Of a DNA stretch of 63,218 bases, positions 18,948 to 61,536 are shown one piece after another. Source of the DNA: an uncultured Eubacteriales bacterium (GTDB lineage: Bacteria; Bacillota; Clostridia; Christensenellales; Aristaeellaceae); assembly GCA_900315315.1 (NCBI GenBank), contig OMYT01000015.1, forward strand, positions 1 through 63,218. The letters run 5' to 3'. The translations under genes and the position numbers were made by a program. Every line of letters begins with the position of its first letter. The first letter of the stretch is position 1. The notes below the pieces were generated by a model. That model worked only from the letters and a program-made list of their open reading frames with translations. It ran no database searches and was not told the origin of the DNA.

Positions 18948-18986
18948 GACCGAAGGGGTTTAAGGGGGCGATCGGAAAGCCCCCTT
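18948..18986 (-). repeat. Post-stop stem-loop element, copy 1 (after zinc-ribbon gene)
   Basis: Sense strand is minus. Stem AAGGGGGC/GCCCCCTT (8 bp), 9-nt loop TTTCCGATC, then tail AAACCCCTTCGGTC. The stem overlaps the TAA stop codon of the zinc-ribbon gene. It is one of five copies in the window sharing loop and tail while the stem sequence changes with its pairing kept. No T-run follows, so it is not a standard terminator. Confidence 0.8.
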
Positions 18987-19686
18987 ATTGTATGATCATT
19001 CTTCCGCAGGTTTCACACTCAATAAGCGCGCCGTTTTTGATCTTTGAAAGCGTTGCGGAGGGAAGAGAAGTGTTGCAGCCGGAACACTGACCGTAGGTCA
19101 GCCGGGCTACCGGCGGAGAAATATGCTTCTTGATCACCTCATACTCCTCCAGCAATTTGGGATCCACCTGATCCATCATCTCTTTGGCTTTCGCTCGCTG
19201 CGCGTCCAGTTCGACCTTTTTGCTCTTTGATTCTTCTTCATACTCGGTCTTCAGCTGGTCAAAAGCTTTTTTGGCGTTGGCCGCTTCCAGCCGTACGCTG
19301 CGCTGCAGCTTGTCGTTCGCTTCGGTTTCTTTTGAGATCCGGCTGATCTCTGCTTCATACTGGCGGATGGTATCGCGGCACTTGCTGACCTCGGACAGCA
19401 GGGCTTTTACATCTTCCGGGGTATCAAGGGCTTCGGTTTCATACCGGTTCTGCAGGATCTGAAGCTGTTCCCGGGAACGTTCAACCGCTTGGGCGATGAT
19501 GTCTTTCCGGTCTACCATGGCGGAAACATCTTCTTCAATCTGCTTATACTTCTTCTGCCGGTCAAGGATAAAATCACGGGCTTTTTCAAGCTTCTGGCGG
19601 GTGGGTGAACGCTTGATTGAGTTTGCGATGGCATCCGCTTTCATGTCTTCGGTCTGATAAGCCCACAGCGCTTCATACTTCTCCAT
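18985..19686 (-). CDS. Coiled-coil C4 zinc-ribbon protein (COG1579 / DUF164 type)
   Basis: 233 residues: a long helical hairpin rich in Glu, Lys and Gln (residues ~15-185) followed by a C-terminal treble-clef ribbon with CSGC and CETCGR as the two zinc pairs. This is the architecture of COG1579 proteins, often found downstream of nif3-like genes in Clostridia, as here. Members have been linked to nucleic-acid or ribosome-associated roles, but nothing in this sequence settles the function. AAGGAGG lies 8 nt before the ATG. It is the last gene of the dgt-dnaG-rpoD block, and its stop codon is overlapped by the post-stop element. Confidence 0.85.
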   Translation of the reverse strand: MEKYEALWAYQTEDMKADAIANSIKRSPTRQKLEKARDFILDRQKKYKQIEEDVSAMVDRKDIIAQAVERSREQLQILQNRYETEALDTPEDVKALLSEVSKCRDTIRQYEAEISRISKETEANDKLQRSVRLEAANAKKAFDQLKTEYEEESKSKKVELDAQRAKAKEMMDQVDPKLLEEYEVIKKHISPPVARLTYGQCSGCNTSLPSATLSKIKNGALIECETCGRMIIQ

Positions 19687-19734
19687 ACAAGGAGCCTCCT
19701 TCTGGCAGGATTGATGATCAACCGCCTGCCGCGG

Positions 19735-20499
19735 TCAGTAAGGGAAGGTATAGGCCGGAACCTCCGACACATAAACCCTCACATTACATTCTAACGCAGG
19801 AAGCGCCTTTTGTAAAGCAACTGCCAGGACCTCCATGGCCGGCTCTTCGGTGGCAAAATGTCCGCATTCGAAGGCGACAAGGCCGCTGTCGGCCATTGCC
19901 AGGGCGAGATGATGCTTGATCTCTCCGGAAAGGAAAGCGTCGCAGCCGGCTTCCGCGGCGGTTGTCCATTCATCGCTTCCGCCGCCGCTGCACAGGCCGA
20001 TTTTCCGGATTTTCGCGTCTTCCGGACCCATGAGGCGGACTGTCGTCCCGAGTCTGCGGCTGAGTTCTTCCGCACAGGCGGAGGCCGTCATGGCTTCCGG
20101 CAGCAGACCGCAGCGAAAAAAACCTTCACCTGACACATCTGTGAGCCCGCAGAGTTCAGCCAGCGTGTCGTTGACGCCGCAGGGCGCCTGATCCAGATTG
20201 GTGTGGGCGGCAATGAGGCTGATATTCTCCCTCACAAGGTGGCGGATCAGACGGCCTTCATAGTCTTCATCGGTAAGCTGCCGGCGGGGGGAGAACATCA
20301 ACGGGTGATGGGTGATGATCAACTGTGCGCCGAGGGAAACGGCTTCATTGATGACTGCTTCCGTGACGTCCAGAGCCAGCAGGACGCAGGATACTTCAGC
20401 GGCGGGGGAGCCGACCAGCAGACCGGAATTGTCAAATTCAGCCTGGGTTTCAAAAGGGGCAATTTCGTTGATAAGAAGGTAAAAATCGCGAACTGTCAT
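19735..20499 (-). CDS. Nif3-like dinuclear metal-centre protein (YqfO/DUF34)
   Basis: 254-residue Nif3/DUF34 protein, a family that forms toroidal hexamers with a two-metal site. Expected metal ligands are visible: LIITHHPLMF, AAHTNLDQAPCGVNDTLAE and the C-terminal FECGHFATEEPAM. It lacks the ~100-residue insert of Bacillus YqfO, so it is the short bacterial form. The biochemical role is debated; a GTP cyclohydrolase-like or metal-insertion role has been proposed for the family. Its position directly after trmK mirrors Bacillus yqfN-yqfO. GGAGG is placed 8 nt before the ATG. Confidence 0.9.
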   Translation of the reverse strand: MTVRDFYLLINEIAPFETQAEFDNSGLLVGSPAAEVSCVLLALDVTEAVINEAVSLGAQLIITHHPLMFSPRRQLTDEDYEGRLIRHLVRENISLIAAHTNLDQAPCGVNDTLAELCGLTDVSGEGFFRCGLLPEAMTASACAEELSRRLGTTVRLMGPEDAKIRKIGLCSGGGSDEWTTAAEAGCDAFLSGEIKHHLALAMADSGLVAFECGHFATEEPAMEVLAVALQKALPALECNVRVYVSEVPAYTFPY

Positions 20500-20562
20500 T
20501 TGAGATTCCTCCGCTTTGGTGTTTGTAATTGGATTTTGCCTCCGGGCCCGGGACGGTAAGCA

Positions 20563-21246
20563 CTAAGGGATTCTGCTTTCATAGAAGGCGATGTCTTCGC
20601 GTACCTGGTTGATCAGGGACTCATCCTGTTTTTCGGCGGTCAGGAGCCCCTGCAGTTTATCGTCCAGAACATCGCGGCGGCGGATGAGGTACGGGATCAG
20701 CTGATCCGACGCGGAATCGAACAGCGGACCGCCCAGCCGGATTTCCCGGGGAGACAGATCCGCCGCGCCGGGTCTGGCGCGAAGCACCAGATAGAATCGT
20801 CCGGCGCAATAGCAGGGTTCCTCCCGGTCAAGGTGGTAACCGATCCGGCAGACCGCTTCCCGGATCAGGGGAAGGTCCGTATGGGCTGAGAGCAGGAGCG
20901 AGGCACCCTTCAGCCGGTCCTGCCCGGAAAGCAGGATATCCCGGATGGTCCGCCCGCCCATACCGGTCACGGAGATCATTTCGCATTGTTCCCGAAGCGG
21001 CTGAAGGCCGTTCCCGCAGCGGAAGGTGACCCGGTCTGTCAGCCGGCAGGCAATGATCCCGTTCCTGGCGTTGTTCAGGGCGCTCTCGCTCAGGTCCGTC
21101 AGAATCATATGCTGACAGCGGCCGCGCTGCAGGAGCGCGGCCGGTAGATGGGCGTGATCTGTTCCGATGTCCGCCGCCAGCTCGCATGGATCATAGAGAT
21201 CAAAGGCAAGGGACAGGCGGGCATCCAGATTGACAGGGGTGGGCAT
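20563..21246 (-). CDS. trmK: tRNA (adenine-22-N1)-methyltransferase
   Basis: SAM-dependent enzyme that forms m1A22 in the tRNA D-arm. The Rossmann SAM loop ELAADIGTDHAHLPAALL, then ILTDLSESALNNARNGI and VTGMGGRTIRDIL, are characteristic TrmK (YqfN, COG2384) motifs. A C-terminal helical coiled-coil tail follows. The start is taken as the ATG at 21246 (MPTPVNLDARL), because the open frame upstream of it overlaps rpoD. Only 4 nt separate it from the rpoD stop, so it is co-transcribed and likely translationally coupled. About 227 residues. Confidence 0.92.
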   Translation of the reverse strand: MPTPVNLDARLSLAFDLYDPCELAADIGTDHAHLPAALLQRGRCQHMILTDLSESALNNARNGIIACRLTDRVTFRCGNGLQPLREQCEMISVTGMGGRTIRDILLSGQDRLKGASLLLSAHTDLPLIREAVCRIGYHLDREEPCYCAGRFYLVLRARPGAADLSPREIRLGGPLFDSASDQLIPYLIRRRDVLDDKLQGLLTAEKQDESLINQVREDIAFYESRIP

Positions 21247-21250
21247 AAGC

Positions 21251-22777
<1,527 letters not shown>

Positions 22778-22853
22778 TGGAATCCTCTCCTTCTGATTCA
22801 CGTTGGTCGGTCAGGTTCCGTAAGGGTCACGGCAGCATCACTGCCGGAAAGCA

Positions 22854-40998: not shown

Positions 40999-41035
40999 GA
41001 CCGAAGGAGCTCGAGGGCGACCGGAAAGCCCTCGA
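40999..41035 (-). repeat. Post-stop stem-loop element, copy 2
   Basis: Sense strand minus: stem TCGAGGGC/GCCCTCGA, 9-nt loop TTTCCGGTC, tail GCTCCTTCGGTC. Compared with the other copies, both strands of the stem have changed together. It lies beyond the terminator of the 41162 gene and just after the SDR stop codon on the other strand. Confidence 0.8.
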
Positions 41036-41066
41036 AAAAAAAGCCCCGGAGCAAATACTCCGGGGC
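41035..41066 (-). terminator. Terminator of the small gene at 41162
   Basis: A 9-bp perfect stem GCCCCGGAG with its complement encloses a 6-nt loop and, on the minus strand, is followed by eight Ts. It separates element copies 3 and 2. Confidence 0.85.
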
Positions 41067-41093
41067 CGAAGGGGGGCGATCGGAAAGCCCCCC
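41065..41093 (-). repeat. Post-stop stem-loop element, copy 3 (short tail)
   Basis: Sense strand minus: stem GGGGGGC/GCCCCCC, loop TTTCCGATC, then directly TTCGGC. The C-rich part of the tail is missing, and TTCGG follows the stem at once. Confidence 0.78.
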
Positions 41094-41121: not shown

Positions 41122-41158
41122 GACCGAAGGGGTTTGGGGGCGATCGGAAAGCCCCCAA
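41122..41158 (-). repeat. Post-stop stem-loop element, copy 4
   Basis: Sense strand minus: stem TTGGGGGC/GCCCCCAA, loop TTTCCGATC, tail ACCCCTTCGGTC. It begins 3 nt after the TGA stop of the small gene at 41162. Confidence 0.82.
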
Positions 41159-41161: not shown

Positions 41162-41389
41162 TCAAGCTATCTTCTCAAGATAGTTGAAGAGCTTCATCTC
41201 ATCATTGCTGTCGGAGGCGAAGAGTTCCGGATCCTCATCCCCAATCAGGCTGGCAATCCCGAGATACTTCTCCATCGGGTTCTTCAGATCATACTGATCC
41301 CCTTCAGGCGTAAGCACCAGCACAGAGTGTTCGCACTGCTCCAGCGTGTCTTCAAACAGCTTCAGCTCATCATTATTACAAATCTTCAT
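41162..41389 (-). CDS. Unrecognised acidic small protein
   Basis: 75 residues, acidic, no signal peptide or membrane segment. The order appears to be helix (NDELKLFEDTLEQCEH), beta hairpin (SVLVLTPEGDQYDL), helix (MEKYLGIASLIG), then an acidic linker and helix (DEMKLFNYLEKIA), which suggests a compact domain. AAAGGA lies upstream of the ATG at a rather long spacing. A genuine gene is supported by its own terminator and by post-stop element copies 4 and 3 directly behind it. I do not recognise the family. Confidence 0.6.
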   Translation of the reverse strand: MKICNNDELKLFEDTLEQCEHSVLVLTPEGDQYDLKNPMEKYLGIASLIGDEDPELFASDSNDEMKLFNYLEKIA

Positions 41390-46971: not shown

Positions 46972-49900
46972 ATGATGAATGCAGGAAATCTGAACGGAAA
47001 AGCCAGACAGATGAAGGATTGGAGGCGGCGCCTTGTCGCGCTTGTCGCAGCCTTGTCATTGCTGATTTCATCCTGCGGGCTGACGGCCTTCGCGGAGTCG
47101 GATGATGATATTTATTCCGCTCCCGTGACGGCGCCGATCGCCCCCGATACCTCGCCGGAGCCGGAGGAGACAGCGGAGGCTACGCCTGCTCCCGAAGGTC
47201 AGGAAGAGACCGGGACGGAACCGGCGGAAGGGACCGGGGAAGAGAACGGGACCGAGCCCGGGGAAGAGACCGGAACCGGGGCCGAAGGGGAGCACGAGGT
47301 TTCCGAGGAGCCCGTGGATCTCACAGCCTACGAACCCGGCACCCTGACTGCCGAAGCGGATGACATTGCGGTCACGCTGGACTACACCGCCGAGGCCCGC
47401 ATTCCGGAAGGAACCGTGTTCACCCTGGCCCGTGCGGCGGGCGGAGACCTTTATACAGCCATGAAGTCCGCGGCCCGGGTCCTGAAGGAGGAGCAGAACG
47501 AGACCTGGAAGCGCGAAATGGGAGACGAAGCCCTCTTCTATCTGCTCACGCTGACAACCCCGGAAGGAACGGAAATCCATCCCACCGCCGGCGTTACCCT
47601 CACCTGCACCAATTTGGTCATCCCCGCTGACGCCACCGGTTTTGTGACCGGCAGCAACGCGGAAAATGTGGACTGGACCGGAGACCTGAATATTGAATTC
47701 CTGCCTGATGCCATCGGCTATGCTTATCTCAAACAGGTTCAGATCGGAACCGTCACCCTGGTCCATGAAGACCGTGACTACATGGTAACCGCGTCCTACG
47801 GCCCGGACGCAGGCTTCCCCGTCGGAACCCAGCTGAAGGTTCGCGAGATCATGCCTGGCACGCCTGAATACACGCTTTACAGCGGCATGACCGACGAAGC
47901 CCTGAATGAGGACTGGAGCGAGATCACCCTCGAGCGCTATTTCGATATCGCCTTTGTCAAGGGAGAAACTGAACTGGAGCCCCAGGCGGACGTCGATGTC
48001 CAGATCACTTTCCGTGACAAAATTGAAGAGAATGAAGATACGGAAGTGGCCGCCGTCCATATCGAGAATAACGAAGCGAACGTCATCGAGTCCGAAACCG
48101 ATTCCCAGAAGGCCGCCAAACACGATGACGAAGCCATCGATACCGTAGCCTTCACTTCCGATAGCTTCTCTGTTTACGGCGTTGTCCAGAAAAAGAAGAT
48201 CATCACCAAGATCCTGGATGCCCAGGGTCATACCTACGAGATTGAAGTTACTTATACCCAGGAAGCCGAGATCCCCGAAGATGCTCAGGTGAAGGTCGAA
48301 GAGATCCCGGAAGGCAGCGACCTGTGGGAAGCCTACAGGCTCCAGACTGCCGCCGCCCTGAACGCGGATGACGTGCGCCTGCCCGGTTTGTACGATATTT
48401 CCATCGTTGATGCGGAAGGGAATAAAGTAGAACCCAAAGCCGCGGTGAATGTCGCCTTCAAACTGCTGAACGACGAAACCACTGAAGATATCCAGGTGGT
48501 CCACTTCAAGGAAGAGATCCCCCAGGAACTCGTTGAAGCGGCAGCACAGACCCAGGAAGCCGCAGAACAGACCGAAGTCCAGATTGAGCCCCTCGCAGAA
48601 GAAAACAAAATTGCTTCCGAAGAGATCCAGGCCAGCGTGGAAGGCGACGCCGTCACCTTTGACACGGACAGCTTCTCTGTCTATGCTTTCGCCTACACGA
48701 TTGTCACCTATTACAAGGTAGCCTCCGGCGAAACCTACAAGATCACCCTGAACTACGACGAGAATTCCGGCATCCCGGCAGGCTCTACCCTCAACGTCGA
48801 AGAAATCCTGCCTGGCGATGAGCGGTACAACGAATACCTCGAAATGGCCCTCAAAGCCGCCGGTCAGACAACTGAAGCCGAAGAAGCAGCAACTGAAGGT
48901 GCAGTCACAGAAGAAGGAACAGAAGCAAGCGAAGAAGCAGCCGTGACCGAGGAAACCACGGAAACGATAATTCCTGAGAATCAGTATGCACGTTTCTTTG
49001 ATATCGAGATTCGGAATAATGATCAGAAGATCGAGCCGACTGGTAAGGTCTCAGTTACAGTCGAACTGGCGGATATGCCTAAAGATAAACAGGACACGCT
49101 GAAGGTTGTCCACTTTACTGAAGCAGAAGCGATTCTTGTAAAAGCCGACGCGACGTCTGAATCAATCACGTTTGATGCTGATTCCTTCTCGGTTTATGGT
49201 GTGATTGTTTACGAAAGCAATCCAACTGGTGTAACCGGTCTGGATGGAAGATCCTTCACAATCAGACACAACGGTTACGTTTCAGCAAATGTAGATAAAA
49301 ATGCAACTACAAATCTTTTCCTTAAGAGTTCAGAACCGACTGTTTGGTATTTTGAGGCAGCGGGTGAGTCTGATGGAAATCCATACTATATCTACACGAT
49401 TGTGGATAAAACGAAGCTGTATATGCGTTTGAACCGGCGTGATTCCAACAATGCGCATGCTGAACTCAGCGAGGTTCCTCAAGCTTTCGAAGTAGGAATG
49501 ATCGGTTCACAATATACATTCAAAACAACAAGTAATAATACGGACTACTATTTGAATGCATTTAGGAATACGAATGGTTTTGCTGGGTGGTACCAAAGAA
49601 GTCCATCTGATGACAAATTTGACCTGAAATTCCAGGATCCGCTTCTTACCGAAGGCGAAAACTATGCAGTAATTGTTAAAGCCCAGGGTGGAGACACATA
49701 TTATGCTGTCCAGAATGATGGTAAACTGCAGGCAGTGGACTATAATCCTGATACCAATACTGTAACGTTGGATTATCCGCTTTTCTGGGAGTATAAGAGA
49801 GAACCGCTATATAATGGTTTTATCCATAATCTTCGTATTCCGACACAAGCCAGTGGCTTTGATGGCAACAACTTGCCTAAAGGCTACTACTACAGATATA

Positions 49901-52900
49901 TTGATCCGGCAGAAGCGAACCCTGCTCTTGTTAAAGGAAACGCTATCTCTGAAGAACCGATTATCCCTGTAGAAGGTGATAACGACGATCATACAGCAGA
50001 GGCGAATGCAAATCATCCAGGCTATGCTTTGAATTGTGCTGTAGTTTATGAGAATAACCGGATATATGGTATTAATTCTCAGTATCTAGGTATCGATGAA
50101 ACTAACCTGACTCTCAAATCGAAAGTTGATGCCAATTCTGCTGCAGAAGTGTATTTCGTCAAAGCGACAGATGTCCTGCCATCTGCAAACCTGAATCACA
50201 CAGTGAACCATATCGATATATCGATCAAAGGCGGCGCTTCGCTTGATGTTAACTTAAAGAATGGAACATATTATTATAGAGATAATAACAATGAGCTTAA
50301 GCCGTTTACTGTCAGTGAGTCCAATCCTGTGACATTAAAACTGAAGACGGATAATGTTGACATTGAGCCGGATGACATGAAACGTGCTCTGATCACCGCC
50401 TATACCAGGAACAAAGGCGTACTGGACAATGCTTTCTACATTACCGGCTATTCGCAGAACCGCCATAATGATATCAGTACAAACCAGATTCGACTTGAAG
50501 GATCTTTTAAGGTTGCGAATCTGGATCCCTATCAGGGAGTTGATGAAGATCATCTGACTTGGTGGCAATTACAAGCTAGGAAGAATAATAGGGTTTATTA
50601 CTCCATTACTGTGAGCAAACCTGTTACTTTCAACTGGGAGTACAATATCGACGGGCGGACAAGGCCACTGCTGGATAAAGACGGGAACCAGCTTAGTTCT
50701 ACCGTTACAGTCAATCTGTCCAAGAGTTTTGACTATTGGGATGAGCAGAATGAATGCCCGCCGGTTACATGGAATCGTGGAACCTGGCGTGATGGCCATA
50801 TAATCTGGGATACTTCTGAGCATAACGGCAGTGGTATGGACTTCAAACTTGAGGCTCCTCTAACGATCATCGATCAGAATAAAGTTGCGATTGAAATCAC
50901 AAAAGATTTACTGACCGTGGATGGCGAAGTGCTGTATCCGAGCACCACAGTTACGAATCAGTTTGTTGTATATCAGAAAACTGAGGATTATGCTAATGAT
51001 ATTAGTAATGTAGCAGATATCGGCATATCATCCAGGGAAAATACATATGATTATACAGATGCAGGCTATAGCGGATTGCATATTAAGCCCATCTCGATCA
51101 GCAGCAATACTGTTTCCGGTATGGTACGTGACCTGGATGTTACAGCAGGTATGGTCTATATCGAAGAGGACAGTGAATCCATTGCCAAAGTGATTACCGA
51201 TACCTCCGGCAAGAAGTGGAAGTATGTCAGCACTTATATCGAAACTGACTATGCTGATCGTGGAAATGCTTTTACAAAGCACACGGTTGACGGACTGAAG
51301 GCTGTTCCGGAAGTTCTGGGCACGTATAACGGCGATAAGACCAATAACCTGCAGAAGTTCCATGTTTACAATGTTTATACACCTGTAACGGAACTGACGG
51401 TCAATAAAGTTTGGGATGACAATTCAGCGAGTCACACGGAAGATTCTGTCATATTGAAACTGTATCGCTATACCAACGGAACGAAATATGAAGCTCCTGT
51501 TGACCCTGGTACTGGCGGAGGATCTGGAGGAGCTTCAGGTAGTGGCACTGGTGAGGAACCAATTGAAAAAGCGACACTTATGGTTGTTCGTTCACAACAT
51601 AAAGACAATAAGGATAAACGAGAAACAATAAAAACGACCAATATTACTGCGGGAAAACGTTACTGTATTTCATGGAATGCATTAGGTCCTGATAATGAGA
51701 TTTATGTTAATGGAGTTTTAAAGGAAAGATTCAGTGCAGGTGAATGTACTTATTTATCTCCAAGTCCTGTATCGGCAAATGAAACAATAACTATTGAAAT
51801 AGTTGACACTCGTTATGATCAAAATGGAGTTAGTAACCTCAGTGTTACTGAAGTATCAGACAGTACGGGCAAGCAAGATAATGATATCGTGATTGCTACA
51901 AATCGTGCGATTCGCTTCCGTGCATATGCCGGAGGATCGGATGTAGGCGAGTCCACTGTGTCTGAAGACGAGTTTGTGAAAGACATTACTCTGTATGACG
52001 GACACTGGATAGAAACACTTGAAGACATTCCAGTATGTGATCCGGATGGATATCTGTACTATTACAAGATTGTTGAAGAAGTTGTTCCGCCCAAGTACAA
52101 GGTGACCTATTCTTCAACCGGCCTTGCTGCGAATACTCAGAGCCTCATACTGACAGCGACTAATACGAAGGATGATACAAAGAAAGGCTCTCTGAAAGTA
52201 AGCAAGGAGGTTACCGGTGACGGAGATACAGAGAAGGAATTCAAATTCAAGGTTACTCTGATCGGACATACGGGATACGATAAATTCTCCACGGAAGAAG
52301 TTAGAAATAATCAAACAAAAACAGGGGAAATCGAGTTTAATGGTGATTATGCAGAGTTCACGCTGAAACATAACGAAAGCCTGAAAATCAATGATTTGCC
52401 TGAGAATACGCAGTATAAGGTCGAGGAAGAAACGGTCCTCGGTTATAAGACAACTATTACTGGAAACACGACGGGCACAATTACTCATGACAACACGGCA
52501 GAAATTAGATTTACCAATGAGAAAGTGAATAATGGTTCCCTTAAGATCCAAAAGGTGGTTGCCGGCGACAGCGCAACAGATGAAGACAGAAACAGGGAGT
52601 TCACATTCACCATCGAGATCCTGAAAGAGGATAACAGCAGAGATACCGATTTCAGGGGACTTCATGGGCAGGTAACGTTTGATCAAGGTGTCGCTACAAA
52701 TGTAAAACTGAAACATGGAAATTCCGTCACAATTGAGGATCTGCCTTATAACACACTGTACAAGATTTCAGAAAGTTATGACGAATCAATTGGGCAGACA
52801 AACCTTTATGAACAATCTGTTCTGGTGCAGATTGATGGCAGAGAGCCTCAAAATATGCCGCTTATTGATCGTGTTACCAGTTCCGGGCAGATCGATATTA

Positions 52901-55900
52901 TCGTTACAAACACCAGAAAAGAAACCATCAATATCGATGCAAATAAGGCCTTTACGACGGGTTCTGTCAAGCCGACTGCTATACAGTTAACTTTGATCCG
53001 CAAGGGTGACGATCGTGACGACTTTGATGTTGTCGATGTCGTGACAGTGACTGAAAGCGATGGCTGGAAGCACGAGTGGAAGAACCTCCAAAAGATGTAT
53101 GAGGACGGAGTCACTGTATACACATATTTCGTGGTCGAAACAGGGCTGTATTTCGGTGAATTGACAGGTGGGACAATTTCTGACGATGACTGGGTTGCAC
53201 CCAATATTTCGCGCCTGTCTGAGGGAGACCTCGCATATGATGCAGAGAAAAAAGCCTGGACGATTACCATTGTTAATACGTCCTGGACAGATGTTCCTGT
53301 CGTGAAATCGTGGCCTGACTTCAGTGATTCACAATACGACTGGTATGTTAAATTCCAGTTATACAAGAAGGAGGAACTGGTCTTTGGCAATGCCTTGACG
53401 GAAGGGGCTGCCCTGGACTGGACTGCTGTACCTGAAAAAGTGCTGACGGTCGAAAAGAATGCGACTTCAACACCCAGGTTCAGTGATCTGGATGTATACC
53501 GCAAGGATTCAAACGGAAATGTTTATAAAGTGACATATAAGGTTAAGGAAATTGAGTATAAAGTCTGGACCGGATCGAATCCGAATGATGAAAATGCGAT
53601 CGTTGCACAATGGTCTGAGAATGGTAGTCTGACCCATAAAACATACAAAGATAAAGATTACGTCCCGACCTTTGAACAGGAGATTGCTGGTGAGGATATC
53701 ACCATCACGAATCTTAATGAACGCTATTCCATCATTGTAAAGAACGAGCCTAAGGAGAACTTTGACGGAAAACTGGTTGTACATAAGGAATGGATTGATA
53801 TTCTTCCGGAGGACCTTCCCAATTGTCCGGCGGTTTATGTTACGCTCTATCAATTGGCACCGGGACAAACTGAAAAGAGATTAGCAAAAGCATATGTATC
53901 CAAAGATGCTAATGATCAAGAAACATATATCCATCATAAATTGGATGCAGAGAACAACTGGACCTGGGCGATAGATCATCTGCCAATCAGCCCTGAAGGA
54001 TCATCAGGTGAATATAAGTACTTTGTGGTAGAGGAGCCTCTCACAGGTATTGATCAAAGCTATTCGTATCTGGATAACGAATGTACAAAACCGCTGGGAA
54101 CAATTATTGAAACCGATAATACAACATGCAATACAGACAAGAACTATTATATTCGTCTTGACTGCTATCAGGTTCGCGATACTTACGGAACCGGCACATG
54201 GTCAGCTGAATATGGTTACGCCGATCCGCATCTGGCCAGAACCGGCAATACCGGTGAGATCAAGATTAAAAACAGGTGCCCCAGTGAATATATGCAGATG
54301 GATCTCAAAAAGAAGTTCCTTGAGTACAGACTCGAAGAGAGTGGGGCTGTCAGTCTTTATACCACAACGCAGGAAGTAGATGTCATGAAAAACATGTTCA
54401 TCGAGCTTCAAATGTATCGAAGGATTGTTACCAGTGACAGCCCTGCGAACAATCCTACTGTGGTTAAAGTCTGGGATACATATGGTTATCCTTTTAAGGT
54501 TGGATATGATAAAGCAGGCACTGCGAAGGTAATCCCGAATGAGAAGAATCCATTTGAAGTTGAGAATGCAGGAGGCAACTGGGCATTCAGGATTCACAGC
54601 CAAAGCCAGAGAAATGGTTTGCCAAGGCGCGGCTTCTATAGAAATGACCAGGATCAGCTTATAGCGGTTCGCTATCAGTATCTGTTTAAAGAGATTAATG
54701 TCTATGATGGAGATCTGAACACGATCGGTGGACAATGGTCTGCCTGGCTGCCTTATCTGTGGGACCCGATTACAGATACAGCGACAAAGATCAAAGTATT
54801 TGATCTCCAGACTGCCCAGGATGATGACCGCATTGTGAATACCCCCGGATCATCGTTGACTGTGATTAAAGAGTGGTCAGGTAGCCATTCGGATGTAGAT
54901 GAAGTTTATATCAAGATCTGGAGAAAATCGGATGGTAAAGGTTGGGAAGACTTTACACATTATATCTGCACAGAGATGAAACTTGGTTCCATTTCTCAGA
55001 ACTATATGGGTACATATTCCGCATATCTTGACAAGAACAAGGAGTGCCTGATCCTGAAAGAAGGGAACTCCTGGAAGGTAATCATTGATCATGTTCCGAT
55101 CCTTGACAGTAATAACAGTGGTAAACCCTTTATCTACAAGCTCGAAGAGATAGGATACAAGTATACTGGCCATGATCCCGTGTATTCAGTACGTGAAACC
55201 GAGACAGAGTTTAGCCCTGTGTACTATCAGTGGAATGTTGGGAACAATGATTTTGAGGTTCAGAATAACCCGGATTCAGGTTTGGTTCTGAAGAAAACAA
55301 ATGCCACTTCCAACAAATTAATGGTGTCTAATACATCAAAGTTTGGTGCTCTTCAGATCATCAAAGCGATTGCCCCAATCGGAGTGGAAACGTCGGAAGC
55401 CTTTACCTTCCTCGTTACGCTAAGCAGCTTACCGGCTGAAAAGATTCTTGCTGCTTCGGAATTGAGCGTTACAGGAGGAGCAATCACCGAATTCAACCGT
55501 GCAACAGGTTCTAATACGGCTACATTCAAGATTACGATCACTGGTGCAGGAACAGCCACGATCAATGGCATACCCTATGGAACAACTTACACTGTAGTCG
55601 AGGAAACACCGCCTGCCGGATGGGCAAAGGTTGGGTCTGAAGTTTATAGCGATATGGGAACCACCAAGACCATCGCCACAACAGATAATCCGATCGATAC
55701 GGTTACAGTAACCAACAGGGAGATTACTGAAGTTAAGGTGATCAAGCACTGGTTCCAGGCAGGCGGCTCGCCAGAAATCACGAATGATATTCAAGGTGCT
55801 ACTGTTTCGGTTATGTTGAAAGATGCCAAGGGAACTCAGCTCAGAGACATAAACGGACAGGATCTGACAAGCGCGGTGCTGAATGTAACACTAAATGGCA

Positions 55901-56928
55901 GCCCAAATTGGACTTATACCTGGTCGAATCTGCCAAAGCGCTATGAAGATGGATCTGTGATCGAGTATAAGGTCGTAGAGACCCTGGCAAAAATCGGTAC
56001 TGCTGAGGTGTTCTCCGGTACGATGGAAGCTGAAAAACGAGATGACGGATTCTTCCATCTTGACAATACATTGCCGAAGAAGAACATAGAAGTGACCAAA
56101 GCCTGGGTGGATGGAGACAGCCATGCCTGGCCGACGGATATTAATAAAGTGACGGTAGGTCTGTATTGGCTGAACGGCAGCACGGTTGAGCCCTATCCGG
56201 ATCAGGCAAACCAGATGAAAATTGATATCACGGAGGATAACGAACAGAAAAATTCGTTTACAGACCTGCCGGTATACGATAATAATGGAGCGTTGATTAC
56301 CTACAGCATCAGAGAACTGAGCATCACACTGACGGATGGGACAACAGTCGGAACACGTGGAGACGGTAATGACTATATCCAGATTACAGGCGATCATGCG
56401 CAGAGTTGGTCCGTAAGTGAAACGGCAGTATCCAACGGTGCTGCAACGGTTACAAACACACCGGTAAAGGCAAGCTTCAATATCCGGAAGGTGAATGCAG
56501 ATGATATGGCAACCCCTTTGACCGGTGCAAAGTTCAAAGTCGGAATACCGGACGGTACTGACAGTGATGGAAACCCGAAGTACAATACAGTTATAGACGA
56601 GTTTGAGGTTGAGTCGAGCAAGGATTATGAGATTACTGGTCTCACGGACGGCACTTATGTGCTGATTGAGACGAAGGCGCCTGACGGGTATAATATGCTG
56701 AGCGCGCCAATCAGTTTCACGGTTGCCAATGGCACAGTAGCATTCGAGAATGGAAACTCGACTGTAGTGTATAATTCTGTAGAGAAGTTACTGAAGGTTG
56801 GAAATACTTCCGGCGTTGCACTTCCGTCTACCGGCGGCAGCGGTACGCTGATCTACACAATTGCGGGTATGGCGCTGATTGTGCTGGCAGGGGTGCTGCT
56901 GGTGAGCAGGAGAAAGAGAAAGACTTAA
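46972..56928 (+). CDS. Giant Cna_B-repeat LPXTG surface adhesin
   Basis: 3318 residues. Signal peptide at ~14-43 (WRRRLVALVAALSLLISSCG, cleavage near TAFAES), a Pro/Glu/Thr-rich linker to ~115, then three full and one degenerate copies of a ~140-170-residue domain ending in DSFSVY (~127-748). After that comes a large beta-rich region, and from ~1471 to 3280 a string of Cna_B/SpaA domains (for example LTVNKVWDDN, GSLKVSKEVTG, VKVIKHWFQA, VTKAWVDGD, IRKVNADD). LPSTG is at 3284-3288, then a hydrophobic helix and RRKRKT. It is anchored to peptidoglycan or polymerised by sortase; Cna_B domains usually form internal isopeptide bonds. GAGG is 9 nt before ATG 46972. Base composition falls sharply inside the gene near 48,970. 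Confidence 0.93.
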   Translation: MMNAGNLNGKARQMKDWRRRLVALVAALSLLISSCGLTAFAESDDDIYSAPVTAPIAPDTSPEPEETAEATPAPEGQEETGTEPAEGTGEENGTEPGEETGTGAEGEHEVSEEPVDLTAYEPGTLTAEADDIAVTLDYTAEARIPEGTVFTLARAAGGDLYTAMKSAARVLKEEQNETWKREMGDEALFYLLTLTTPEGTEIHPTAGVTLTCTNLVIPADATGFVTGSNAENVDWTGDLNIEFLPDAIGYAYLKQVQIGTVTLVHEDRDYMVTASYGPDAGFPVGTQLKVREIMPGTPEYTLYSGMTDEALNEDWSEITLERYFDIAFVKGETELEPQADVDVQITFRDKIEENEDTEVAAVHIENNEANVIESETDSQKAAKHDDEAIDTVAFTSDSFSVYGVVQKKKIITKILDAQGHTYEIEVTYTQEAEIPEDAQVKVEEIPEGSDLWEAYRLQTAAALNADDVRLPGLYDISIVDAEGNKVEPKAAVNVAFKLLNDETTEDIQVVHFKEEIPQELVEAAAQTQEAAEQTEVQIEPLAEENKIASEEIQASVEGDAVTFDTDSFSVYAFAYTIVTYYKVASGETYKITLNYDENSGIPAGSTLNVEEILPGDERYNEYLEMALKAAGQTTEAEEAATEGAVTEEGTEASEEAAVTEETTETIIPENQYARFFDIEIRNNDQKIEPTGKVSVTVELADMPKDKQDTLKVVHFTEAEAILVKADATSESITFDADSFSVYGVIVYESNPTGVTGLDGRSFTIRHNGYVSANVDKNATTNLFLKSSEPTVWYFEAAGESDGNPYYIYTIVDKTKLYMRLNRRDSNNAHAELSEVPQAFEVGMIGSQYTFKTTSNNTDYYLNAFRNTNGFAGWYQRSPSDDKFDLKFQDPLLTEGENYAVIVKAQGGDTYYAVQNDGKLQAVDYNPDTNTVTLDYPLFWEYKREPLYNGFIHNLRIPTQASGFDGNNLPKGYYYRYIDPAEANPALVKGNAISEEPIIPVEGDNDDHTAEANANHPGYALNCAVVYENNRIYGINSQYLGIDETNLTLKSKVDANSAAEVYFVKATDVLPSANLNHTVNHIDISIKGGASLDVNLKNGTYYYRDNNNELKPFTVSESNPVTLKLKTDNVDIEPDDMKRALITAYTRNKGVLDNAFYITGYSQNRHNDISTNQIRLEGSFKVANLDPYQGVDEDHLTWWQLQARKNNRVYYSITVSKPVTFNWEYNIDGRTRPLLDKDGNQLSSTVTVNLSKSFDYWDEQNECPPVTWNRGTWRDGHIIWDTSEHNGSGMDFKLEAPLTIIDQNKVAIEITKDLLTVDGEVLYPSTTVTNQFVVYQKTEDYANDISNVADIGISSRENTYDYTDAGYSGLHIKPISISSNTVSGMVRDLDVTAGMVYIEEDSESIAKVITDTSGKKWKYVSTYIETDYADRGNAFTKHTVDGLKAVPEVLGTYNGDKTNNLQKFHVYNVYTPVTELTVNKVWDDNSASHTEDSVILKLYRYTNGTKYEAPVDPGTGGGSGGASGSGTGEEPIEKATLMVVRSQHKDNKDKRETIKTTNITAGKRYCISWNALGPDNEIYVNGVLKERFSAGECTYLSPSPVSANETITIEIVDTRYDQNGVSNLSVTEVSDSTGKQDNDIVIATNRAIRFRAYAGGSDVGESTVSEDEFVKDITLYDGHWIETLEDIPVCDPDGYLYYYKIVEEVVPPKYKVTYSSTGLAANTQSLILTATNTKDDTKKGSLKVSKEVTGDGDTEKEFKFKVTLIGHTGYDKFSTEEVRNNQTKTGEIEFNGDYAEFTLKHNESLKINDLPENTQYKVEEETVLGYKTTITGNTTGTITHDNTAEIRFTNEKVNNGSLKIQKVVAGDSATDEDRNREFTFTIEILKEDNSRDTDFRGLHGQVTFDQGVATNVKLKHGNSVTIEDLPYNTLYKISESYDESIGQTNLYEQSVLVQIDGREPQNMPLIDRVTSSGQIDIIVTNTRKETINIDANKAFTTGSVKPTAIQLTLIRKGDDRDDFDVVDVVTVTESDGWKHEWKNLQKMYEDGVTVYTYFVVETGLYFGELTGGTISDDDWVAPNISRLSEGDLAYDAEKKAWTITIVNTSWTDVPVVKSWPDFSDSQYDWYVKFQLYKKEELVFGNALTEGAALDWTAVPEKVLTVEKNATSTPRFSDLDVYRKDSNGNVYKVTYKVKEIEYKVWTGSNPNDENAIVAQWSENGSLTHKTYKDKDYVPTFEQEIAGEDITITNLNERYSIIVKNEPKENFDGKLVVHKEWIDILPEDLPNCPAVYVTLYQLAPGQTEKRLAKAYVSKDANDQETYIHHKLDAENNWTWAIDHLPISPEGSSGEYKYFVVEEPLTGIDQSYSYLDNECTKPLGTIIETDNTTCNTDKNYYIRLDCYQVRDTYGTGTWSAEYGYADPHLARTGNTGEIKIKNRCPSEYMQMDLKKKFLEYRLEESGAVSLYTTTQEVDVMKNMFIELQMYRRIVTSDSPANNPTVVKVWDTYGYPFKVGYDKAGTAKVIPNEKNPFEVENAGGNWAFRIHSQSQRNGLPRRGFYRNDQDQLIAVRYQYLFKEINVYDGDLNTIGGQWSAWLPYLWDPITDTATKIKVFDLQTAQDDDRIVNTPGSSLTVIKEWSGSHSDVDEVYIKIWRKSDGKGWEDFTHYICTEMKLGSISQNYMGTYSAYLDKNKECLILKEGNSWKVIIDHVPILDSNNSGKPFIYKLEEIGYKYTGHDPVYSVRETETEFSPVYYQWNVGNNDFEVQNNPDSGLVLKKTNATSNKLMVSNTSKFGALQIIKAIAPIGVETSEAFTFLVTLSSLPAEKILAASELSVTGGAITEFNRATGSNTATFKITITGAGTATINGIPYGTTYTVVEETPPAGWAKVGSEVYSDMGTTKTIATTDNPIDTVTVTNREITEVKVIKHWFQAGGSPEITNDIQGATVSVMLKDAKGTQLRDINGQDLTSAVLNVTLNGSPNWTYTWSNLPKRYEDGSVIEYKVVETLAKIGTAEVFSGTMEAEKRDDGFFHLDNTLPKKNIEVTKAWVDGDSHAWPTDINKVTVGLYWLNGSTVEPYPDQANQMKIDITEDNEQKNSFTDLPVYDNNGALITYSIRELSITLTDGTTVGTRGDGNDYIQITGDHAQSWSVSETAVSNGAATVTNTPVKASFNIRKVNADDMATPLTGAKFKVGIPDGTDSDGNPKYNTVIDEFEVESSKDYEITGLTDGTYVLIETKAPDGYNMLSAPISFTVANGTVAFENGNSTVVYNSVEKLLKVGNTSGVALPSTGGSGTLIYTIAGMALIVLAGVLLVSRRKRKT
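51498..51960 (+). other. Gly/Ser linker and extra domain inserted inside a Cna_B domain
   Basis: Within the adhesin (~residues 1510-1663), a Cna_B strand (LKLYRYTNGTKYEAP) is interrupted by a GGGSGGASGSG linker and a ~110-residue beta-rich segment. The Cna_B sequence resumes at ITLYDGHWIETLEDIP. The inserted DNA is AT-richer than its surroundings. Confidence 0.65.
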
Positions 56929-56936
56929 TCAGAGAG

Positions 56937-57709: not shown

Positions 57710-57844
57710 ATATGCTCGGAGCATCACATCAGAATATCGGAAACAGTTAGTTGCAAGATAAAAGTGAAATTTAACAAAATGATTTTCAATGTGTAACCAA
57801 AAATAATGAACATTATTCTACAAAGGCTTATAAAATACCAAAGA

Positions 57845-57866
57845 GAAACGTTTCGGAAACGATTTC
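57845..57866. promoter_or_regulatory. Two adjacent LacI/CcpA-like operator dyads
   Basis: GAAACGTTTC is a perfect 10-bp palindrome and is followed after one base by GAAACGATTTC, an odd-length variant. Both resemble LacI-family or catabolite-repression sites. They lie ~130 nt upstream of the promoter of the Glu-rich protein gene. Confidence 0.45.
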
Positions 57867-57994
57867 GGAACTGATCATGGTAACTAATGGGGGGAGGGGG
57901 AAGACGAATAATTACACTAAATAAGCGTACAGTTAATGATATATGTAATAAAAATCAAAAAATTTTTCCAAAAAAGTTGTAGAATTTCCTGAAA

Positions 57995-58028
57995 TGTAAC
58001 CGGGCATGAAACCATTGGTTGTTATAAT
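57995..58028 (+). promoter_or_regulatory. Promoter of the Glu-rich exported protein gene with TGTAACC/TGAAACC repeats
   Basis: TGTAACC (57995-58001) and TGAAACC (58007-58013) are again 12 bp apart and lie 9 nt before TATAAT (58023-58028). This is nearly the same arrangement as upstream of the giant adhesin. Confidence 0.6.
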
Positions 58029-58093
58029 GACATTGTCAGAGTGGAAAGGAAGGAAAAAACACTCTGAAATGACGAAAGAAAGGAGTGGCAGAA

Positions 58094-58978: not shown

Positions 58979-58997
58979 TAGAACAGACAGCTTACAA

Positions 58998-59024
58998 GAT
59001 CATCCGAAAGGATGGTCTTTTTTG
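58998..59024 (+). terminator. Terminator of the Glu-rich protein gene
   Basis: An 8-bp stem GATCATCC with GGATGGTC (one G-T pair) closes on GAAA and is followed by TTTTTTG. Confidence 0.85.
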
Positions 59025-59037
59025 TTGCTTTTTCATA

Positions 59038-59066
59038 TTGCGTGCAAACGTTTGCTGTGTTAATAT
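59038..59066 (+). promoter_or_regulatory. Cellobiose phosphorylase promoter with a LacI-type operator in the spacer
   Basis: TTGCGT (59038-59043) and TAATAT (59061-59066) are 17 nt apart. The perfect 12-bp palindrome GCAAACGTTTGC occupies 59044-59055, inside that spacer. This is the textbook LacI/MalR-type operator, so a bound repressor would block RNA polymerase directly. Confidence 0.75.
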
Positions 59067-59106
59067 TGGCGTAGAAAAAGAGTATTTGTTTTCAGGAGGA
59101 AAAATC

Positions 59107-61494
59107 ATGCAGTACGGCTATTTTGACGAACAGGCGAGAGAGTATGTCATTACCAATCCGAATACGCCGGCGCCCTGGGCCAATTATCTGGGATCTCCGG
59201 AATACGGCGCGATTGTAACGGTGAATGCCGGGGGATACAGCTTTATCAAGAGCGGTGCTGCGGGCCGGATTTTGCGATATACCTTCAATCAGTTTGATGA
59301 GCCAGGCCGGTATATCTATCTGCGGGATGAGGAGACGGGTGACTTCTGGTCCGCCAGCTGGAAGCCTGTGGCGAAGCCGCTGGAAGAATACAAGACCGAA
59401 TGTCACCATGGCACGAGCTATACGGAGATTGTCAGCGAGTATAACGGGATCCGCAGCAGGGTCCTGTATTATGTTCCCATGGGCGCAACCCATGAGGTAT
59501 GGCGGATCACGGTGGAGAACCTGACGGACAGGCCGAGGAAGATTGCTGTGTTCGGTTATGCCGAACTGACGACGGAGAGTTTCTATACACAGGACCTCGT
59601 GAACATGCAGTATACGCAGTTCATTACGAAGACAGAATTCCATGACAACTTCATTCTGGAGCAGATCAATGAATTCAGTTATCCGAATCCGGACGGAACG
59701 ACCGGGCGGGAGCGTTTCTTCGGCCTGGCGGGCGCGCCGGTGGAAAGCTATACGGGCCGGCGGGAGCAGTTCCTGGGACGGAACCGGTTTGACAGGCCGC
59801 AGGCGGTGCTGGACGGGAAATGCGACAACAGCCTGAACTACAATGCCAATCCCTGCGGCGCCCTGCAGTTCAGCGCAAGGCTGCAGCCGGGCGGGAAGCA
59901 GACCGCTGCCTTCCTGCTGGGACAGAAGACGGTGTTTGAAGCAAAGGAGATCATGGACCGCTATGCGGATCCGGCGGGAACGGTGGAACGGGAACTACAG
60001 GAACTGATTAGCTACTGGCACGGGGAACTCGCCAATCTGAAGATTTCCACGCCGGACAAGAACTTTGATGCGATGATCAACACGTGGAACGCGTTCCAGT
60101 GCTTCACGACCTTTGTGTGGAGCCGGGCGGCGAGCCTGGTCTACTGCGGGGAACGGAATGGATACGGATACCGGGATACCGTACAGGACATCCAGGGCAT
60201 CATGCATCTGGATCCTGAGATGGCGCGGAAGATGCTGACCTTTATGCTGAGCGCGCAGGTGCATCACGGAGCCGGGCTGCCCCTGGTCAAGTATTCCCAC
60301 AATCCTGGGCATGAGGATACGCCGGAGCAGGAGAGTTATGTCAAGGCGACAGGGCATCCGAGCTACCGGGCGGACGACGCGCTGTGGCTGTTCCCGACGG
60401 TGTACAAGTATATTGCTGAGACCGGGAACGTGGCATACCTGGATGAAGAAATCCCGTTTGCCGACAAGGACACGGGTACGGTGCGGGAGCATCTGAAGCG
60501 GGCGATTAACTTCAGCATGACCCATCTGGGGCCGCACGGGATGCCGGCGGGCCTGCACGCGGACTGGAACGACTGTCTGGTGCTGGGTTCCCAGGGAGAG
60601 AGCACGTTTGTGGCGTTCCAGCTGTATTATGCGCTGAACATCATGAAGGAGTTCTGCGAGAATGAGCCGGAGTATGTGAAGTATCTGGAGGAAACCGCAT
60701 CGAAGCTGCTGAAGATCCTGAACGATCTGTGCTTTGAGGGCGATCGCTTCATCCGCGGATTCCGGGATACGGGAGATGTCATCGGGAGCAAGAAGGACCG
60801 GGAAGCCTCCATGTGGCTGAATCCGCAGAGCTGGGCGGTCATCAGCAGAGGCGCGACGCCGGAACAGGCGGAGATCATTCTGGAAACCGCCCATGAGAAA
60901 CTGAATACGCCCTACGGGCTGGAACTGATGCAGCCCAGCTATCGTTATGATTATTTCGAAGGCGCCCGGATGAGGCTGTTTAACCCGGGCACCAAAGAGA
61001 ACGGCGGCATCTTCTGTCAGCCTCAGGGCTGGGCGATCCTGGCTGAGGCGCTGTGCGGGCACGGAAACCGGGCTTTCGATTATTACCGGGAGAGCAGCCC
61101 GGCAACCTTCAATGACGATGCGGACCGGCGGGTGATCGAGCCCTATGTGCACGGGCAGTTCATTGAAGGGCATGAGAGTCCCTTTGCAGGACGGAGCCAT
61201 GTGCACTGGCTGACGGGCACCGCCAGCACGGTGATGGTGGGCTGCGTGGAAGGCATTCTCGGCCTGCGGCCGACGCCCAAGGGGATTGAAATTTCACCTG
61301 CGATTCCGGAAAGCTGGGTCGGCTTTACGATGGAAAAGGTTTTCCGCGGGAAGAAGCTGCATATTACAGTGGATAACGCGGCCCACAAGCAGGGGAAGCC
61401 GGAAAAGGTTGTGCTCAATGGGGTGGAGCGCAAGGCGGGGCTCATTTTGGAGAATGAACTGAAGGAAGAAAACGATATTATTGTTGTGATGTAA
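59107..61494 (+). CDS. Cellobiose phosphorylase (GH94)
   Basis: 795 residues, no signal peptide. Splits cellobiose with phosphate into glucose-1-phosphate and glucose in the cytosol. The start MQYGYFDEQAREYVITNPNT and PWANYLGSPEYGAIVTVNAG are characteristic of cellobiose phosphorylases within GH94. The core has RDTVQDIQGIMHLDPEMARK, GLHADWNDCLVLGSQGES carrying the catalytic acid, and HVHWLTGTASTVMVGCVEGI. CAGGAGG precedes ATG 59107, while an in-frame start upstream lies in the operator and is rejected. The gene is expected to be repressed by a LacI-family protein. Its glucose-1-phosphate enters the same route as that from GlgP. Confidence 0.95.
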   Translation: MQYGYFDEQAREYVITNPNTPAPWANYLGSPEYGAIVTVNAGGYSFIKSGAAGRILRYTFNQFDEPGRYIYLRDEETGDFWSASWKPVAKPLEEYKTECHHGTSYTEIVSEYNGIRSRVLYYVPMGATHEVWRITVENLTDRPRKIAVFGYAELTTESFYTQDLVNMQYTQFITKTEFHDNFILEQINEFSYPNPDGTTGRERFFGLAGAPVESYTGRREQFLGRNRFDRPQAVLDGKCDNSLNYNANPCGALQFSARLQPGGKQTAAFLLGQKTVFEAKEIMDRYADPAGTVERELQELISYWHGELANLKISTPDKNFDAMINTWNAFQCFTTFVWSRAASLVYCGERNGYGYRDTVQDIQGIMHLDPEMARKMLTFMLSAQVHHGAGLPLVKYSHNPGHEDTPEQESYVKATGHPSYRADDALWLFPTVYKYIAETGNVAYLDEEIPFADKDTGTVREHLKRAINFSMTHLGPHGMPAGLHADWNDCLVLGSQGESTFVAFQLYYALNIMKEFCENEPEYVKYLEETASKLLKILNDLCFEGDRFIRGFRDTGDVIGSKKDREASMWLNPQSWAVISRGATPEQAEIILETAHEKLNTPYGLELMQPSYRYDYFEGARMRLFNPGTKENGGIFCQPQGWAILAEALCGHGNRAFDYYRESSPATFNDDADRRVIEPYVHGQFIEGHESPFAGRSHVHWLTGTASTVMVGCVEGILGLRPTPKGIEISPAIPESWVGFTMEKVFRGKKLHITVDNAAHKQGKPEKVVLNGVERKAGLILENELKEENDIIVVM

Positions 61495-61499
61495 TGAAT

Positions 61500-61536
61500 G
61501 TGGGGGCTTTCCGAGTGCCCCCACGCCCCTTCGGGT
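61500..61536 (+). repeat. Post-stop stem-loop element, copy 5 (after cellobiose phosphorylase)
   Basis: Sense strand plus: stem GTGGGGGC/GCCCCCAC, 9-nt loop TTTCCGAGT, tail GCCCCTTCGGGT. It begins 6 nt after the GH94 stop codon and ends 11 nt before the trmO start codon, where it occupies the place of the ribosome binding site. Confidence 0.82.

What the first reader, a model, noticed from the sequence alone, without database searches (positions are those of the whole stretch)
18948..61536. Five-copy, covarying stem-loop element placed just after stop codons
Five copies (18948-18986 minus, 40999-41035 minus, 41065-41093 minus, 41122-41158 minus, 61500-61536 plus) share one design: a 7-8 bp stem, a loop of exactly 9 nt starting TTTCCG, and a tail with TTCGG. 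The outer stem pairs are AA/TT, TC/GA, TT/AA and GT/AC, and copy 2 changes GGGGGC to GAGGGC with its partner strand, so pairing is kept while sequence varies. CCG in the loop is always complementary to CGG in the tail, which would allow a pseudoknot. Three copies begin within about 6 nt of a stop codon, in the gene's own orientation; one stem overlaps the stop codon. None has the T-run of a terminator. This looks like a dispersed structured RNA element rather than chance.
Basis: partly seen in the sequence, partly recalled or inferred. Interest (0 to 1): 0.85.

Follow-up and report, generated by a model that had tools for sequence, protein, structure and literature searches.

The report
Mobile pseudoknot repeat after stop codons
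A tiny mobile repeat, about 37 bases long, sits right after the ends of genes in some Clostridia and in phage genomes, and its sequence variation says that it folds into a knot whose third strand follows the sequence of the stem, which looks new.

Summary
The five copies are real and belong to a large family: an exact pattern finds 145 in the window's 4.26 Mb genome, the reversed pattern 0. The family also occurs in other Clostridia MAGs and in phage contigs; Rfam has no match.

The stem covaries. The pseudoknot is supported: loop TTTCCG goes with tail TTCGG, loop TTTGCG with tail TTCGC (13 of 14; 14 of 14). This suggests a triplex pseudoknot.

The element is mobile: two orthologous sites are empty in 29 of 29 other loci each. 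It often lies directly behind stop codons, mostly in sense.

It resembles REP/BIME repeats but lacks the GTAG/CGTC tag and a linked RAYT gene, so I do not file it as a REP. Likely action: a structured 3' barrier on the upstream mRNA, spread as a non-autonomous element. The mobilising enzyme is unknown and the RNA role untested.

The parts
18950..18987 (-). Copy 1: stem TAAGGGGGC/GCCCCCTTA, loop TTTCCGATC, spacer AACCCC, tail TTCGG; the stem includes the TAA stop of gene 18985-19686(-)
   Evidence: no copy behind this stop in 29 of 29 other loci
41001..41036 (-). Copy 2: stem TTCGAGGGC/GCCCTCGAG (end pair T-G), loop TTTCCGGTC, spacer CTCC, tail TTCGG; stem and spacer both carry the A/T change
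41066..41093 (-). Copy 3: shortened form, stem GGGGGGC/GCCCCCC, loop TTTCCGATC, tail TTCGG without spacer
41124..41158 (-). Copy 4: stem TTGGGGGC/GCCCCCAA, loop TTTCCGATC, spacer ACCCC, tail TTCGG; begins 3 nt after the stop codon of 41162-41389(-)
61499..61534 (+). Copy 5: stem TGTGGGGGC/GCCCCCACG (end pair T-G), loop TTTCCGAGT, spacer CCCC, tail TTCGG; begins 4 nt after the stop of 59107-61494(+) (GH94) and lies before the TrmO gene 61548-62210(+)
   Evidence: absent in 29 of 29 other loci of the genus
41036..41065 (-). Ordinary intrinsic terminator between copies 2 and 3; a neighbour, not part of the element
   Evidence: read directly: GC-rich hairpin followed by a run of T

Best explanation
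It is a non-autonomous mobile repeat of about 37 nt plus a variable 3' flank, REP-like in behaviour. Its conserved part folds into an H-type pseudoknot: stem S1 (commonly 7-10 bp), L1 = UUU, S2 = 3-4 bp between loop CCG(A/G) and tail UCGG, and a spacer L3 that lies along S1 as a third strand in parallel register. Many copies lie directly behind stop codons, mostly in the orientation of the upstream gene. Once transcribed, the knot most likely acts on the upstream message as a 3' barrier (against 3'-to-5' exonucleases, or by holding ribosomes at the stop codon), so that genes of one operon are expressed differently. Shown: repetition, covariation of S1 and S2, the third-strand rule, empty orthologous sites, stop-codon placement, presence in phages. 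Inferred: the triplex itself, the RNA-level role, the enzyme that moves it.
For: 145 copies in the genome, 0 matches of the reversed control. S1: 7 of 10 pairs change on both sides, covariation score 0.483 against 0.135 shuffled (the 58 rows were picked from 136 cores that have an unbroken 7-10 bp stem, so the 100% pairing is by selection). S2: loop GCG goes with tail TTCGC in 13 of 14 hairpins found without a condition on the tail and in 14 of 14 in stretches of two further genomes. Third strand: opposite a 5'-G the spacer has C in 102 of 107 (position 1) and 104 of 109 (position 2); opposite a 5'-A it has C in 0 of 32 and 0 of 18; concordance 1.00, 0.978, 0.977 in the own, phage and other-Clostridia sets taken alone; extra G's in the stem go with the C-run in the spacer (0-2: 35 of 40; 1-3: 16 of 22; 2-4: 57 of 65; 3-5: 15 of 23). 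Placement: stop of an ORF of 80 or more codons within -3..10 nt of the stem side in 38 of 106 own copies (3.5 expected) and 28 of 83 phage copies (3.8 expected). Sense against antisense between codirectional genes: 57 to 22 own, 61 to 13 phage. Mobility: empty orthologous sites, 29 of 29 loci twice; behind phage capsid genes 11 of 58 relatives carry it, with different stems.
Against: No transcript or probing data. 22 of 106 own copies are antisense to both neighbours. In the set from other Clostridia there is no stop-codon excess (8 of 159, 6.0 expected); some of those copies carry another hairpin before the stem or stand in inverted pairs. Opposite A-U the spacer base is more often A than U, which is not a standard pyrimidine-motif triple; on the complementary strand the same rule fits a purine-motif triplex (motifs recalled), so the working molecule could be DNA. 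Other loop types with a changed triplet do not show the pairing: of the 33 hairpins that are neither CCG nor GCG, 1 has a complementary tail, probably by chance, and none of the 6 CTG loops does; most of the 33 are probably unrelated hairpins. No mobilising enzyme found. Target-site duplications are not general.
Confidence: 0.55

Rival explanations
1. A purely selfish DNA repeat: the knot is the recognition form of single-stranded DNA for a transposase, as hairpin plus tag is for REP/TnpA-REP and IS200/IS605; closeness to stop codons only reflects where insertion does least harm.
For: Empty sites and turnover, subfamilies of near-identical copies, inverted pairs and mosaics in some other Clostridia, the tag CCGAAGG on the 5' side of the hairpin on the complementary strand, and a third-strand rule that fits a purine-motif DNA triplex (motif recalled).
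Against: Harm avoidance alone does not obviously explain the peak at -4..5 nt from the stop (36 of 76 sense copies) or the sense bias of 61 to 13 in phages. No copy was found beside a Y1 transposase in 30 loci.
Confidence: 0.3
2. A transcription terminator or pause site of unusual form, with a weak U-rich stretch some 7-13 nt behind the knot.
For: T is raised at +10 to +12 behind TTCGG in all three sets (0.40, 0.53 and 0.54 at +11 in own, phage and other Clostridia). TTTT within +6..+25 occurs in 16 of 87 phage copies against 3 of 87 at +41..+60, and in 23 against 12 of 106 own copies.
Against: No U-run directly behind the structure (TTTT in +1..+8: 4 of 106 own, 1 of 87 phage, 0 of 169 others); the other Clostridia show little TTTT excess (28 against 25 of 169); many copies lie between codirectional genes; ordinary terminators stand beside copies in the window.
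Confidence: 0.12
3. A dispersed relative of type III antitoxin RNAs (ToxI/CptI), small H-type pseudoknots with loop-stem interactions.
For: Same size class and fold class; direct tandem copies exist (L002, L259). CptI comes from Eubacterium rectale, a Clostridia species (PMC4627078, abstract start and passages).
Against: ToxN (PF13958) was not found in the window's genome and was found in 1 of 41 genomes, one without the element; most copies are single and intergenic.
Confidence: 0.03

Closest known systems
REP / BIME repeats (GTAG- and CGTC-tagged repetitive extragenic palindromes)
   Same: Short palindromes in high copy, intergenic, with a conserved short tag on one side of the hairpin, in part as inverted dimers and mosaics, many just downstream of coding regions (PMC3733652, PMC8266576, passages). 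E. coli REPs within 15 nt of a stop codon act on translation, as cited in PMC12306157 (passages).
   Different: No GTAG or CGTC tag (tag is CCTTCGG / CCGAAGG); the loop is complementary to the tag; the spacer follows the stem sequence; no RAYT gene seen beside copies (CGTC repeats too are said to lack one, PMC3733652); copies in phage contigs.
H-type pseudoknots with loop-stem triples (ToxI, CptI, SAM-V, guanidine-III, SAM-II, preQ1-I)
   Same: S1/S2 topology; in most pseudoknots the long loop lies in the minor groove of S1 and can form triples (PMC4627078, passage). SAM-V and guanidine-III: abstract starts seen. preQ1-I and SAM-II details recalled.
   Different: Those are riboswitches or antitoxins; here the stem varies freely and the third strand varies with it over many dispersed copies.
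Stenotrophomonas SMAG-type REPs
   Same: Stop-proximal placement and possible mRNA role (recalled)
   Different: GTAG-tagged hairpins (recalled); no pseudoknot described in what I saw

Membership tests
REP (GTAG/CGTC) | Short palindrome, high copy number, intergenic | tested here: met
   145 copies; 104 of 106 copies outside called genes
REP (GTAG/CGTC) | Terminal GTAG or CGTC tetranucleotide | tested here: not met
   Within 8 nt of the stem side and of the tail side, of 371 copies: GTAG 2 and 1, CTAC 1 and 0, CGTC 1 and 20, GACG 10 and 4. Tag definition from PMC3733652 and PMC8266576 (passages).
REP (GTAG/CGTC) | RAYT (Y1 transposase) gene flanked by copies (GTAG families; PMC3733652 reports none for CGTC repeats) | tested here: not met
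   PF01797 in 29 of 61 genomes; no copy in the 30 loci fetched around matches, two chance hairpins without the tail. The window's genome shows only short pieces of the domain; it is 89% complete, so absence there is weak.
REP (GTAG/CGTC) | Organisation in inverted dimers/mosaics (BIME) | tested here: met
   Inverted pairs and repeated mosaics in L071, L058 and L114 from other Clostridia; in the window's genome copies are mainly single or direct tandem by eye
Type III antitoxin RNA | ToxN-family nuclease gene in the same genome | tested here: not met
   0 in G000; 1 of 41 genomes. ToxN models only; CptN and TenpN were not searched apart.
Type III antitoxin RNA | H-type pseudoknot with loop-stem triples | tested here: inconclusive
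   S1 and S2 covary; triples are inferred from the third-strand rule, not seen in a structure
Intrinsic terminator | U-run directly behind the hairpin | tested here: not met
   TTTT in +1..+8 in 4 of 106 own, 1 of 87 phage, 0 of 169 others
Any Rfam 15 family | Score at or above the gathering score | tested here: not met
   0 in the window; 9 loci with copies gave only a 5S rRNA; of 26 sub-threshold matches none came near its gathering score and the best ones include the ordinary terminator

The most novel reading that the evidence does not exclude
A bacterial SINE-like element: a self-folding triplex pseudoknot that is copied into the 3' ends of strongly expressed genes of host and phage (the major capsid gene above all) and serves there as a portable RNA 3' end. 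The stem is free to change because the triple-strand code, not the sequence, is under selection.
Probability: 0.15. Interest if true: 0.92.

Novelty: new variant of a known kind. Interest (0 to 1): 0.77.

Why it matters
If right, a whole tertiary fold, third strand included, can be read from covariation over many natural copies of one repeat. That is an unusual natural data set on which triples a nucleic-acid triplex tolerates. It is also a test case for how tiny elements spread among gut bacteria and phages, and for whether they tune the gene in front of them.

Tried and rejected
Rfam in gathering and E-value mode: nothing relevant.

RAYT/Y1 transposase link: no copy in 30 loci around PF01797 matches. 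Presence does not track copies by eye: G001, G002, G023 and G035 have 2-4 Y1 matches and no copy, while G014, G020, G025, G031 and G036 have copies and no Y1 match; several of these genomes are incomplete.

Target-site duplications: own set 18 of 84 with 6 nt or more (9.6 expected; mean match reached in 8 of 200 shuffles), phage set 17 of 76 (7.4 expected; 0 of 200), other Clostridia 8 of 159 (8.9 expected; 146 of 200). Possible tandem arrays were dropped first: 22 of 106, 11 of 87, 10 of 169. Two suggestive single cases (14 nt in L257, 9 nt in L222). Not a general feature.

ToxN link: rejected. Antiparallel pairing of the spacer with the 5' stem strand: below the parallel register at every shift tried; it reaches 0.835 on informative cores only at the extreme shift of 4, where few positions overlap.

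I first read the phage sites behind capsid genes as one conserved place with changing stems. A search for capsid relatives not conditioned on the element found 47 of 58 without it, and trees of two of the three capsid families scatter the bearers (the second tree has unresolved forks, the third family was not treed). Repeated acquisition is the better reading.

Plasmids: one query, no match. Papers: the four literal 17-mers are in 0 papers; the listings show no description of this element, and only passages of three REP papers and one antitoxin paper were read. The library holds only open-licence papers. That the genus is Aristaeella is a guess from recall, tested by nothing; only shows that the name is in use.
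Full report
What is there. The general form is X-GGGC - TTTCCGATC - GCCC-X' - Y-CC - TTCGG, where X and X' are complementary and differ between subfamilies (TAAGG, CCA, CCAAA, CCAGA, CCAGG, TTGGG, TGCGA, TGTGG and others). The exact pattern occurs 145 times in the 4.26 Mb genome that holds the window, the reversed control 0 times.

Distribution. Of 61 genomes (the window's and 60 relatives) 21 hold the exact pattern: 21 of 37 in the genus, own included, and 0 of 24 from other families of the order. The single-contig genomes G023 and G035 have none. A sample of the class gives 1 of 391, the window's own genome. The viral collection gives 74 stretches, and five uncultured phage records from human faeces hold matches of 89-94%. 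The element is patchy, which fits horizontal spread.

Structure. S1 varies by changes on both sides in 7 of 10 pairs. Its 58 rows were picked from 136 cores with an unbroken stem of 7-10 bp, so the percentage paired says nothing, but the variety of pair types does. S2, the pairing of loop and tail, is shown by a second loop type. Among 423 hairpins defined by a closing C-G pair, a 9-nt loop starting TTT and a stem of 6 bp or more, loop CCG goes with tail TTCGG in 368 of 376, and loop GCG with tail TTCGC in 13 of 14. The CCG figure is biased because most loci were fetched by CCG and TTCGG; the GCG copies were not chosen by their tail. Of the remaining 33 loop types 1 has a complementary tail, probably by chance, and 1 each of CTG and CCT has TTCGG; none of the 6 CTG loops pairs with its tail. 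Stretches of two more genomes of the genus, picked from the model's hits (the model was trained on both types), hold 14 GCG loops, all with TTCGC; the 5 CCG loops in the same fetch all have TTCGG. The base after CCG is A in 259, G in 96, C in 12 and T in 4 of 371 copies; A and G can pair with the U before CGG, so S2 is probably 4 bp in most copies.

The third strand. The spacer between stem and tail is not free. Read in parallel to the 5' strand of the stem, it has C opposite G in 102 of 107 unique cores at the first variable pair and in 104 of 109 at the second; opposite A it has T 18, A 13, G 1 and C 0, then A 16, T 2 and C 0. Mutual information summed over positions is 1.95 bits against at most 0.76 in 500 shuffles within equal lengths. 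G or not-G in the stem agrees with C or not-C in the spacer at 97.7% of positions of the 45 informative cores, and at 100%, 97.8% and 97.7% in the window's genome, phages and other Clostridia taken alone (9, 26 and 20 cores); one base off register it is 51-63%. The number of G's in the stem goes with the number of C's in the spacer. Antiparallel Watson-Crick pairing does not give a parallel rule, so a triplex is the natural reading. In most H-type pseudoknots this loop lies in the minor groove of S1 (PMC4627078, passage); that it then runs parallel to the 5' strand is my inference from the topology. The set of bases (C on G-C; A or U on A-U) matches no single textbook motif on the sense strand; on the complementary strand it reads as G on G-C and T or A on A-T, as in purine-motif DNA triplexes (recalled). 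I leave open which molecule and which groove. Copies in one genome are related, so the counts overstate independence; agreement between three separate sets is the better argument.

Placement. I trained a simple gene caller on the fetched parts of the genome. Of 106 copies there, 104 lie outside called genes; 76 follow a gene in its own orientation (57 between codirectional genes, 18 between convergent ones, 1 at a contig end), 22 are antisense to both neighbours, 5 lie between divergent genes, the rest are incomplete or inside a call. In 36 of the 76 sense copies the stem starts at -4 to 5 nt from the stop codon. A second cluster of 10 at 19-26 nt is mostly the CCA-type subfamilies (8 of 10 by eye), which carry another hairpin of about 22 nt before the stem. 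By a caller-free test 38 of 106 own, 4 of 9 other-genus and 28 of 83 phage copies abut the stop of a long ORF, against 3.5, 0.2 and 3.8 expected; the set from other Clostridia shows nothing of the kind (8 of 159, 6.0 expected). Where the element is antisense to the gene on its stem side, the stem lies 7-18 nt from that gene's start in 9 of 27.

Mobility. At the site of copy 5, 29 of 29 other loci of the genus lack the element; 10 of them have a single base between stop and next start where the window's genome has 53. At copy 1, 29 of 29 lack it in the 200 nt or less examined behind that stop codon; in the nearest relative, G062, a degenerate copy stands at the end of the convergent neighbour instead (by eye). 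For copies 2-4 one ortholog, in G062, was readable and shows none. At 11 further sites compared with G062, one lacked a flank; of the other 10, I read remnants of an element at 3 and none at 7. Subfamilies with near-identical copies coexist. Target-site duplications are not consistent. No Y1 transposase is linked.

Phages. Of 87 copies in viral contigs, 61 lie in sense between codirectional genes and 13 antisense between such genes. I gave PHROGs 30 of the 35 genes that end within 15 nt before a copy: 11 of 30 are major head protein genes; others match portal, terminase, major tail, baseplate, adaptor or HNH families, and some match nothing. Several of the 11 are related to each other. To tell retention from repeated entry I fetched relatives of three capsid proteins without regard to the element: 67 loci, of which 9 were cut short and dropped, and 58 have a readable 3' end. 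The element follows in 11 of 58, the three query loci among them and two with near-identical 3' ends; the rest show an ordinary hairpin, almost no gap, or other sequence. On trees of two of the three families bearers are scattered and have different stems, though the second tree is poorly resolved. Entry was therefore probably repeated. Either insertion favours strongly expressed genes, or copies there are kept because they help; that capsid genes are strongly expressed is general knowledge, not measured here.

Mechanism. Placement at 0-5 nt behind stop codons, sense bias and the many capsid genes point to action on the upstream mRNA. The closest precedent is REP repeats, which near stop codons act on translation (as cited in PMC12306157, passages) and elsewhere are held to stabilise mRNA (PMC3733652, passages). 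I therefore favour a mobile 3' barrier. A terminator role is less likely because no U-run follows directly, although T is mildly raised further on. A purely selfish DNA role is the main rival.

Verdict. It works like a REP/BIME repeat but fails the tag test and shows no linked RAYT, so it is reported as a new variant of dispersed palindromic repeat, with a pseudoknot and a third-strand rule. No description was found in the searches named under Tried and rejected. On rechecking I lowered the terminator rival from 0.15 to 0.12, because the T excess is weaker in the set from other Clostridia than I had first written.

Noticed in passing
L396 (G062:C36), site matching L375:3575-3640; also G000 locus L025: A second repeat (containing GCAAGGAATCGCACGCGCAC) interrupts an element copy within its loop, after TTTCC, in G062, and follows a truncated copy in G000: a repeat that seems to use the element's loop as a target.
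   Followed up: partly
L396 (G062:C36), sites matching L375:8150-8400 and 12660-12770: Arrays of another repeat (GTGTCATCCCGAGCGAAGTCGAGGGATCT and close variants) occupy intergenic places in G062 where G000 carries the element.
   Followed up: no
L197 (IMGVR_UViG_2515154140), 211-239: One copy with loop TTTCCGCGC, followed by a second, partly similar sequence, in a GC-rich contig unlike the rumen ones; source organism not determined.
   Followed up: partly
window 47059-56928 (+): A 3289-residue surface protein with DUF7601, Cna_B and SpaA domains and an LPXTG anchor.
   Followed up: partly
G000 copies of the CCA-type subfamilies, e.g. L011, L021, L022: A second hairpin with variable stem (TTTCGCGCCTGCGGGCGCGA type) directly precedes the element stem in these subfamilies and is shared with other Clostridia.
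   Followed up: partly
L418-L438, directly behind phage capsid genes: Many relatives without the element carry an ordinary GC-rich hairpin at the same place, followed by a T-rich stretch and AAGGAGTG.
   Followed up: no
G011:C65:7263-7730: A ToxN-family protein (PF13958, E 9.2e-47) in a genome of the genus in which no copy was found.
   Followed up: no
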